Source of the DNA: Acidobacteriota bacterium | Lineage (GTDB): Bacteria > Acidobacteriota > Terriglobia > Bryobacterales > Bryobacteraceae | NCBI GenBank assembly: GCA_016871115.1 | Contig: VFZP01000016.1 | Span: 1 to 34,031, forward strand | DNA: 34,031 nt | Direction: 5' to 3' | Part shown: one piece after another, positions 12,803-14,560 of the stretch | Layout of the letters: each line of letters starts with the position of its first letter | Numbering within the stretch: position 1 is the first letter of the stretch | Made by a program: the position numbers and the translations under genes | Notes under the pieces: model-generated | Seen by the model: only the letters and a program-made list of their open reading frames with translations | The model's database searches: none | What the model was told of the DNA's origin: nothing

Positions 12803-12845
12803 CCACGCTCACTTGCGATATCCTCTTGGACAAGGAGGCGGTCGC

Positions 12846-13343
12846 TTGAAACCCATTGGCGGCTCGGTCGGCGTCACTGGCAAAAACAACTCGCGCGACG
12901 TCATGATCTTCCAGTATTTGTTGAATTACGTGCCTGCGGTGAAAGGCGGCCCCGGCGCCGAACTCGCTGTTGATGGCATATGCGGTCCGCTCACTTGCGC
13001 GGCAATCGGTAAGTTCCAGAAAAAGCAGATTGGCTGGGGCGACGGCTGTGTCGACCCGAACGGCAAGAACATCGCTTCGCTCAACAACTTCGATCCCTAC
13101 CCGGCTCACAATCCGTTCGCCGGCGGCGCAGGAGGGACTGTTGGCGGCAAGCCGGGCAAGAGCGGCACTGGCTTCGGTGTCGGAAAACAAGACTCCGGTG
13201 GCGGACAAGACGATTTTCCCGGCCAGTTCGGCAAGCAAACCGGCTTTGGCGGTGGTGGCTCGGGCGGCGGCAGCAAGCAACCAGGCGGCTCCCCGGGTGG
13301 AGGTTCCTTCCCGTCGAAGTTCGGCGGCAAACAAGGCTGGTGA
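12846..13343 (+). CDS. peptidoglycan-binding-like domain protein with Gly-rich tail
   Basis: TTG start at 12846 preceded by AAGGAGG (about 12832-12838). DVMIFQYLLNYVPAVKGGPGAELAVDGICGPLTCAAIGKFQKKQ resembles PG_binding_1; then a Gly/Ser/Lys-rich tail. The ORF-track start at 12624 is too far upstream. Confidence 0.75.
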   Translation: MKPIGGSVGVTGKNNSRDVMIFQYLLNYVPAVKGGPGAELAVDGICGPLTCAAIGKFQKKQIGWGDGCVDPNGKNIASLNNFDPYPAHNPFAGGAGGTVGGKPGKSGTGFGVGKQDSGGGQDDFPGQFGKQTGFGGGGSGGGSKQPGGSPGGGSFPSKFGGKQGW

Positions 13344-13879
13344 ACCGCGCCATGAACATGAAGAAGATCGCGGCCCCAGTGGGGCAGAATGGCCGTAATC
13401 TCGCAGCCGATGTGATGACCGTTCAGTTCCTGCTGAACTGCGTCCCACCGGGCCGGGGCGGACCGGTCAACGAACTGACGATCGACGGCCTTTGCGGTCC
13501 GCTCACCACGGCCGTCATCGGCAAGTTTCAGCAGTCAAACCTTCGCTTCGCTGACCGGCGGGTGGATCCGGGCGGACGCACGTTGGCCGCACTCCACGGC
13601 TTCGATCCCTTCCCCTCCATGGAAATGCCGGCGCTCATCCGCAGCGGCAAAGCGGGCGGCAAGGGAAAAGGCGGCAAAGCGGGTGGCGGCGGAAAGTCGG
13701 CCAGAGGCGGCCATGTTTTGCATGACCATCCCAGCGGCGCCAAACACTCCGGCAAGAAGTCCTCTGACTTCCCCTCGAAAGGCGCGCCCCAGGACTTTCC
13801 TTTCAAATCGGGCCATGGCAGCCTTGGCGGCAAACACAGCGACCCGTTCCGGCCCGGCGACGGCAAGTTTTCCAGCTAA
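13340..13879 (+). CDS. peptidoglycan-binding-like domain protein with Gly/Lys-rich tail (paralogue of preceding gene)
   Basis: 179 aa; DVMTVQFLLNCVPPGRGGPVNELTIDGLCGPLTTAVIGKFQQSN aligns with the upstream protein; GTGA overlap with the upstream stop; internal ATGs at 13352/13358 are alternative starts. Confidence 0.78.
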   Translation: MNRAMNMKKIAAPVGQNGRNLAADVMTVQFLLNCVPPGRGGPVNELTIDGLCGPLTTAVIGKFQQSNLRFADRRVDPGGRTLAALHGFDPFPSMEMPALIRSGKAGGKGKGGKAGGGGKSARGGHVLHDHPSGAKHSGKKSSDFPSKGAPQDFPFKSGHGSLGGKHSDPFRPGDGKFSS

Positions 13880-14376
13880 TGCCCCGCCAGTTCCGCCTCA
13901 CGAGATTTGTGCGTGAGGTTCTCATACCGGGTGATCCCAACCGGCAGCCGCGGGTCAGCGGCCGTCATGCTCGCTTCAAGCTGCTTCCCGTCCGATCGTC
14001 CATTCACGGATGGGGTTTGGTGGCTGGAGAAGACATCCCCGCGCGTCGCCGCGTGATTGAGTACACCGGCCAAGTCATCTCGAACGAAGGAGCCCGCCGC
14101 CGCATCTGGCGTCCGGTGCTGCATCTGTTTCACCTCGATGAGCACCGCCAACTCGACGGCGGCATCGGCGGCAGCGGCGCGGAACTCGTCAACCACAGTT
14201 GCGAGCCAAGCCTGTACGCGCGCGTCATCCGGCGCCGGCGCATCTACTTCATCAGCCTGCGCCGCATTCGCGCGGGCAAAGAACTCAGCATTGACTACCG
14301 CCTCCGCCCGGACTCGTGGCCCGTGCCGTGCCACTGCGGCGCGCCGTCGTGCCGGGGCGTGATGAATCTACCCTGA
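13879..14376 (+). CDS. SET domain-containing protein-lysine methyltransferase
   Basis: 165 aa; SSIHGWGLVAGEDIPARRRVIEYTGQVIS, ELVNHSCEPSL, GKELSIDYRL, post-SET-like CHCGAPSCRGVMN. TAATG overlap with the upstream gene. Confidence 0.9.
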   Translation: MPRQFRLTRFVREVLIPGDPNRQPRVSGRHARFKLLPVRSSIHGWGLVAGEDIPARRRVIEYTGQVISNEGARRRIWRPVLHLFHLDEHRQLDGGIGGSGAELVNHSCEPSLYARVIRRRRIYFISLRRIRAGKELSIDYRLRPDSWPVPCHCGAPSCRGVMNLP

Positions 14377-14377
14377 T

Positions 14378-14560
14378 ATGAACATCGGCGGCCCCTGGCT
14401 CATCCTCGTCTGGATCGCGCTCATCGCCGTCACCACCCGCTGGCTCTTTCGCGACGCGCGCCAACGCGGCCGCACGCCACTGGCGACGCTCGCCATGCTG
14501 CTCGCTTTCTTTCCTATCGGCCCGCTGATTTGGCTGATGGTGCGCCCGCCCCGACTCTAG
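14378..14560 (+). CDS. small two-TM membrane protein
   Basis: 60 aa; WLILVWIALIAVTTRWLF and LATLAMLLAFFPIGPLIWLMV; starts 1 nt after the SET stop. Confidence 0.65.
   Translation: MNIGGPWLILVWIALIAVTTRWLFRDARQRGRTPLATLAMLLAFFPIGPLIWLMVRPPRL

What the first reader, a model, noticed from the sequence alone, without database searches (positions are those of the whole stretch)
12846..14560. Translationally coupled cassette: two PG-binding-like/Gly-Lys-tail paralogues + SET lysine methyltransferase + two-TM miniprotein
Seen: four plus-strand genes joined by GTGA overlap (13340), TAATG overlap (13879) and a 1-nt gap (14376/14378). The first two are tandem paralogues (shared DVM..Q.LLN.VP...GGP..EL..DG.CGPLT.A.IGKFQ...VDP.G) with low-complexity Gly/Lys tails and no signal peptide; the third is a complete SET domain. 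Known: SET enzymes methylate lysines, often in flexible Gly/Lys tails. Inference: the SET enzyme may modify the tails of its neighbours, giving a dedicated bacterial substrate-plus-writer pair at the envelope or chromosome. I know of no described system with this composition.
Basis: partly seen in the sequence, partly recalled or inferred. Interest (0 to 1): 0.72.

Follow-up and report, generated by a model that had tools for sequence, protein, structure and literature searches.

The report
SET methyltransferase with lysine-tail partner gene
Some free-living bacteria carry a mobile two-gene unit that makes a small protein with a long lysine-rich floppy tail and, right next to it, a eukaryote-like SET enzyme that probably methylates those lysines; no such dedicated bacterial pair seems to have been described.

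Summary
In the window, two tandem paralogues (small PG_binding_1-like head, disordered Gly/Lys tail) precede a complete SET gene. The head+tail / SET pair recurs in other Bryobacteraceae-type genera and in MAGs labelled Planctomycetota, Myxococcota/Deltaproteobacteria, Beta- and Gammaproteobacteria and Pyrinomonadaceae. In the cross-species scan all 19 head genes whose downstream DNA is held have the SET gene next; the other 6 stop at contig ends. Tail sequences are unrelated, yet almost all are Lys-rich and Arg-poor in Arg-favouring genomes, and 21 of 23 carry a Lys 2-4 residues from the C-terminus. The cassette SETs are Lys-depleted and distinct from an mdh-linked SET in the same family. This is what a dedicated lysine methyltransferase and substrate would look like, but methylation is untested, and one subclade has Lys-poor tails yet keeps SET. 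The two-TM miniprotein is not part of the unit. The head domain tracks type VI secretion (26 of 27 strong carriers have TssC, against 62% of other family members; one homologue lies inside a T6SS cluster), so the pair may be T6SS cargo plus modifier rather than an envelope or chromosome protein.

The parts
12832..12838 (+). Shine-Dalgarno AAGGAGG for gene 1
   Evidence: read directly; 7 nt before TTG 12846
12846..13343 (+). gene 1: PG_binding_1-like head (about 12846-13109) and Gly/Lys tail (about 13110-13340) ending GGKQGW; paralogue of gene 2
13340..13879 (+). gene 2: same architecture; GTG start as annotated mechanically, ATG 13352 more likely from homologues; head about 13352-13624, tail about 13625-13876 ending DGKFSS
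   Evidence: AlphaFold head pLDDT above 95, tail about 50
13879..14376 (+). gene 3: SET-domain protein lysine methyltransferase, cassette clade, N-terminal extension LTRFVREVLIPG, Lys-poor (2 K, 27 R)
14008..14298 (+). SET domain proper (Pfam PF00856, residues 44-140); NHSC motif at 14191-14202
   Evidence: motif read and conserved columns
14329..14352 (+). post-SET zinc cysteines CHCGAPSC (C151, C153, C158)
   Evidence: invariant in all 20 aligned SETs
14378..14560 (+). gene 4: 60-aa two-TM miniprotein; follows SET by 1 nt but is not a conserved part of the cassette
   Evidence: no homologue in any other cassette locus fetched

Best explanation
The unit is a two-gene cassette: a small protein with a folded PG_binding_1-like head and a disordered, Lys-rich, Arg-poor repeat tail, and a dedicated SET methyltransferase made with it by translational coupling. 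SHOWN: co-inheritance and adjacency across genera and phyla, intact SET motifs, disordered tails, strong Lys bias in tails and Lys avoidance in the enzyme, a conserved Lys next to the C-terminus, genome-level co-occurrence of the head domain with T6SS. INFERRED: the SET enzyme methylates lysines of the tail in the cytoplasm, perhaps including the C-terminal Lys, before the protein leaves the cell. INFERRED, weaker: the head marks it as cargo or accessory of a type VI secretion system, as in related proteins that carry a hydrolase instead of the tail. I put the writer-substrate relation at about 0.6 and the T6SS link at about 0.4.
For: Adjacency: 19 of 19 head genes with downstream sequence have SET next, usually -17 to +16 nt away; same in G000, G010, G054, G143, G146, G147, G170, G192, G194, G218, G219, G220. 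Lys bias: most tails have 5-28 Lys and 0 Arg while neighbouring genes of the same loci have K/(K+R) mostly 0.14-0.47; Gly-rich stretches of other proteins have 0.27. C-terminal Lys at -2 to -4 in 21 of 23 tails, 17 of 18 non-redundant, against 4.8 expected and at most 14 in 20,000 draws; mostly not explained by a Shine-Dalgarno for SET. Recurrent DP[FWY] motif in 13 of 23 tails against 0.7 expected. Cassette SETs have a median of 3 Lys against 9 in the mdh-linked SETs, as expected of an enzyme that avoids itself. Cassette SETs compatible with one clade. Nearest solved relatives are MLL/Set1-type. T6SS: 26 of 27 genomes with a strong head-domain hit have TssC against 130 of 210 others; 8 of 8 cassette genomes outside the family have TssC; a homologue fused to a papain-like protease lies directly after tssH on a Sagittula plasmid; the Rhodocyclaceae cassette is followed by a TssB-TssC-like gene.
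Against: No methylation was measured. In G193, G194 and G192:C93 the tails are Arg-rich and nearly Lys-free, yet G194 keeps an intact SET. T6SS is common in the whole family (156 of 237), so that association is confounded by kinship, and most cassettes are not near T6SS genes. Fisher, shuffle and rank tests are not corrected for shared descent. Cross-phylum cases rest on MAG labels.
Confidence: 0.6

Rival explanations
1. The SET protein methylates something else (a ribosomal, translation or DNA-binding protein) and merely travels with the head-tail gene on one mobile unit.
For: Unit is sporadic and apparently mobile; Lys-poor tails in G194 keep the linkage; a second SET lives near mdh with no such partner.
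Against: Nothing else travels with the pair; Lys bias in the tail and Lys avoidance in the enzyme are unexplained.
Confidence: 0.17
2. The head-tail protein is a carrier or tether and the SET enzyme is itself the delivered effector, acting on eukaryotic (for example protist) histones, as RomA and NUE do.
For: Bacterial SETs are known nuclear effectors (PMC3980110); nearest folds are MLL/Set1 H3K4 enzymes; T6SS co-occurrence; cassette-specific N-terminal extension ELTAFVREV could be a docking segment.
Against: Does not explain Lys-rich Arg-poor tails or the C-terminal Lys; no export signal; MLL resemblance may be shared ancestry only.
Confidence: 0.12
3. SET sits in the immunity slot: the tail protein is a T6SS effector whose lysines are methylated to keep it harmless in the producer.
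For: Gene order effector then small partner as in effector-immunity pairs; head domain is shared with hydrolases and one lies in a T6SS cluster before a small unknown gene.
Against: Tails are low-complexity and have no recognisable toxic domain; no toxicity data.
Confidence: 0.08
4. Tails are merely flexible, basic linkers or nucleic-acid binders and the Lys bias is physical.
For: Gly-rich tails, basic charge.
Against: In Arg-favouring genomes charge alone would give Arg; control Gly-rich stretches do; linkage to a Lys-specific enzyme is strict.
Confidence: 0.03

Closest known systems
cpnSET and Hc1 of Chlamydophila pneumoniae; Go1-SET and MC1-alpha of Methanosarcina mazei (PMC3980110)
   Same: a prokaryotic SET enzyme that methylates a basic protein of its own cell
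   Different: those substrates are nucleoid proteins; here the candidate is a PG_binding-like protein with a repeat tail, encoded in the same overlapping cassette, in free-living bacteria
Outer-membrane protein lysine methyltransferases: KmtA on AtaA (PMC11784438), rickettsial PKMTs on OmpB; FliB on flagellin (PMC7181671); HBHA Lys-rich tail (PMC8467707)
   Same: multiple Lys methylation of a bacterial surface or exported protein, in HBHA on a Lys-rich C-terminal tail
   Different: to my knowledge those enzymes are not SET proteins (not tested here); substrates are adhesins or filaments, not this head-tail family
KMT2/MLL/Set1 SET domains
   Same: closest solved relatives in sequence and fold
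   Different: lacks every other KMT2 domain; no histone in these bacteria known as target
PG_binding_1-headed hydrolases without signal peptide (papain-like, CHAP-, M15-, GH19-like by eye), one inside a T6SS cluster
   Same: same head domain
   Different: the cassette proteins carry a disordered Lys tail instead of an enzyme and are paired with SET

Membership tests
SET protein lysine methyltransferase (PF00856) | SET fold and domain above the curated score | tested here: met
   Pfam 65.6 bits, cut-off 22.4; Foldseek MLL SET E 3e-13, TM about 0.7
SET protein lysine methyltransferase (PF00856) | SAM-binding GxG, NHxC, catalytic Tyr, post-SET CxCx4C | tested here: met
   IHGWG, NHSC, DY140, CHCGAPSC; the zinc Cys and Tyr140 invariant in 20 SETs
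SET protein lysine methyltransferase (PF00856) | transfers methyl to lysine | not testable with these tools
   needs an enzyme assay
PG_binding_1 / PG_binding_3 domain | score above curated cut-off | tested here: not met
   window proteins 12.5-15.9 bits against 23-24.6; relatives reach 2e-8; DD-peptidase PG-binding domain is the best weak fold match, E 0.24, prob 0.97
PG_binding_1 / PG_binding_3 domain | binds peptidoglycan | not testable with these tools
   none
Type VI secretion cargo | encoded with T6SS core or VgrG/PAAR/Hcp genes | tested here: inconclusive
   one homologue after tssH, one cassette before a TssBC-like gene; other fetched loci gave no T6SS neighbour in a tblastn check with a few queries
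Type VI secretion cargo | host genome has T6SS | tested here: met
   G000 has two TssC matches; 21 of 22 cassette genomes have TssC
Chlamydial cpnSET-Hc1 type pair | substrate is a histone H1-like nucleoid protein | tested here: not met
   head is PG_binding-like; only G192:C135 has an Ala/Lys H1-like tail
OM PKMT (KmtA/rickettsial) type | enzyme belongs to that family | not tested
   no KmtA comparison was run; the enzyme here is a SET protein

The most novel reading that the evidence does not exclude
A new class of mobile bacterial cassette in which a SET enzyme of MLL-like fold writes methyl marks on the lysine-repeat tail of a type VI secretion cargo or accessory protein, either to mature it or to keep it harmless to its maker: a histone-tail-like writer and substrate evolved outside chromatin.
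Probability: 0.28. Interest if true: 0.9.

Novelty: new variant of a known kind. Interest (0 to 1): 0.72.

Why it matters
Substrates of SET enzymes in free-living bacteria are essentially unknown; most described cases act on host histones. This cassette names a concrete candidate substrate for a whole bacterial SET clade, in a two-gene unit of about 1 kb that can be co-expressed in E. coli and read by mass spectrometry. If true it shows a histone-tail-like writer and lysine tail used outside chromatin, possibly in type VI secretion.

Tried and rejected
1) Two-TM miniprotein and the upstream 12194 gene as parts: absent from all other cassettes. 2) N-terminal Lys (M-x-K-x-I) as the invariant target: 16 of 16 in the first set, but Panacagrimonas has Arg (MPRSI) and one unlinked homologue has Lys; kept only as a secondary candidate. 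3) C-terminal Lys as a by-product of the Shine-Dalgarno for SET: possible in about five cases, not in most. 4) Phage origin: no relative in viral contigs, one weak phage hit. 5) Lys-rich tails as a general property of Gly-rich proteins: rejected (the first version of that control was contaminated by cassette proteins and is not used). 7) No paper joins SET, lysine methyltransferase and peptidoglycan-binding in the held library; the SET plus T6SS hits are a host-epigenetics review and a methylome paper.

Full report
WHAT IS IN THE WINDOW. The window is the whole contig C16 of a draft genome. The four ORFs are as stated. Gene 1 starts at TTG 12846 behind AAGGAGG. Gene 2 is given a GTG start that overlaps gene 1, but homologues begin M-x-K-x-I, so ATG 13352 is more likely. 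Gene 3 is a SET protein with Pfam score 65.6. Gene 4 is a two-TM miniprotein found next to no other cassette. Genes 1 and 2 are tandem paralogues (46%); such tandem copies were seen only in this genome.

THE PAIR IS CONSERVED. Among 101 relatives the head domain was found in 10 genomes and stood directly before a SET gene in the window genome and two others. A wider search of 237 genomes of the family, with both genes, extended this to genera g1, g5, g11, g55 and g92. A scan of GTDB species genomes added MAGs labelled Planctomycetota, Rhodocyclaceae, Lysobacterales, Panacagrimonas, Deltaproteobacteria/Myxococcota, Pyrinomonadaceae and an uncultured proteobacterium. Of its 25 loci, 19 hold the DNA after the head gene and all 19 have the SET gene there; 6 end at a contig end. 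Starts lie mostly between -17 and +16 nt of the preceding stop. In G054 the head and tail are in different frames, either two ORFs or a frameshift. The surrounding genes differ between genera. The unit is rare elsewhere: no further pair was identified among 396 Acidobacteriota genomes (those hits were not read one by one), and in 85 genomes of the Panacagrimonas order the only strong head match was Panacagrimonas itself. Five of eight paired genomes outside the family have no second close SET. This pattern fits horizontal spread of the pair as a unit.

TWO SET CLADES. Nearly all family members have one SET (204 of 237), usually near malate dehydrogenase (17 of 28 loci). Cassette SETs are a different group with an N-terminal extension [EL]T.FVREV..PGGPD..P. 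Free tree: two changes of label. With the cassette rows held as one clade the likelihood is 43.8 higher (the quick search had missed it), p-AU 0.94. Thus a single origin is not rejected.

THE HEAD. AlphaFold gives residues 10-90 pLDDT above 95 and a disordered tail. The best solved matches by sequence and fold are PG-binding domains such as that of the 1LBU DD-peptidase, but weak. Homologous heads without SET neighbours are fused to papain-like, CHAP-like, metalloprotease, muramidase- or chitinase-like domains (my reading of the sequences; only the papain-like case is annotated), apparently without signal peptides.

THE TAILS. Tail repeats are unrelated between lineages (GSKQGFGPAG; GQKDGGQGWKTG; GGQAAKGGGY; GPGFGHKGSFPQGFKD; GKGDPYGKGDPY; GDPWGNKSGGG; GIKRALAHE), yet Lys is kept and Arg shunned. 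Most tails have no Arg, while genes of the same loci have K/(K+R) mostly 0.14-0.47, and 95 Gly-rich windows of other proteins have 0.27, only one of them with four or more Lys and no Arg. A Lys lies 2-4 residues from the C-terminus in 21 of 23 tails, mostly outside any Shine-Dalgarno. DP[FWY] occurs 29 times in 13 tails against 0.7 expected, KQ 39 times against 15; repeats inflate the totals, less so the number of tails. The exceptions are G193, G194 and G192:C93, whose tails are Arg-rich and nearly Lys-free; G194 retains SET, the other two end at contig edges.

THE ENZYME. All core motifs are intact. Nearest solved structures are Set1/MLL enzymes, by sequence 84.7 bits and by fold TM about 0.7. 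The cassette SETs hold a median of 3 Lys and 23 Arg, the mdh-linked ones 9 and 15. Lys in the tail and Arg in the enzyme, in adjacent genes, is what a Lys-modifying enzyme sparing itself would leave; this is inference.

TYPE VI SECRETION. A head homologue with a papain-like protease sits right after tssH on a Sagittula plasmid, before a small unknown gene. The Rhodocyclaceae cassette is followed by a TssB-TssC-like gene. TssC occurs in 21 of 22 cassette genomes. In the family, 26 of 27 genomes with a strong head hit have TssC against 130 of 210 others (Fisher p 1.5e-4, kinship not corrected). Most cassettes are not close to T6SS genes. This is a lead, not a demonstration.

PRIOR KNOWLEDGE. Bacterial SET proteins are described mainly as host-directed effectors; self-directed precedents are cpnSET-Hc1 and Go1-SET-MC1-alpha (PMC3980110). 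Multiple Lys methylation of surface proteins is known for OmpB and AtaA (PMC11784438), flagellin and HBHA. No paper in the held library describes this pair; the library lacks most subscription journals, so prior mention elsewhere cannot be excluded.

VERDICT. Real, conserved, and with an unusually clear sequence signature of a writer-substrate pair; the chemistry and the site of action remain to be shown.

Noticed in passing
L001, L007, L009, L014, L016, L018, L027, L029, L031: In the same family a second SET gene lies near malate dehydrogenase, in about a third of the loci with a 35-45 aa single-TM peptide between or beside them, ending in a Lys/Arg-rich stretch and E/D-D-F (RRKxKKxxxEDDF): a possible second small SET partner.
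   Followed up: partly
L178 (Sagittula plasmid NZ_CP021914.1, 7977-9420): PG_binding-like head fused to a papain-like protease directly after tssH, followed by a small unknown gene: looks like a T6SS effector-immunity pair with this head as N-terminal module.
   Followed up: partly
L108 5325-6821 (L160 18492-19991): Gene matching both the TssB (small) and TssC (large) sheath subunit models, apparently alone, directly after the cassette in a Rhodocyclaceae MAG.
   Followed up: partly
L051 6559-7307 (G054:C43): Head and tail are in different reading frames: separate ORFs, a frameshift, or an assembly error.
   Followed up: no
G192 contigs C29, C93, C135 (L078, L089, L083): Three head-tail paralogues in one genome with different tails (Ala/Lys, Arg/Ala, H1-like Lys/Ala); only C135 has its SET visible.
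   Followed up: partly
L057 1240-2139 (G005:C472): Three tandem PG_binding-like heads in one protein without any enzyme domain or SET.
   Followed up: no
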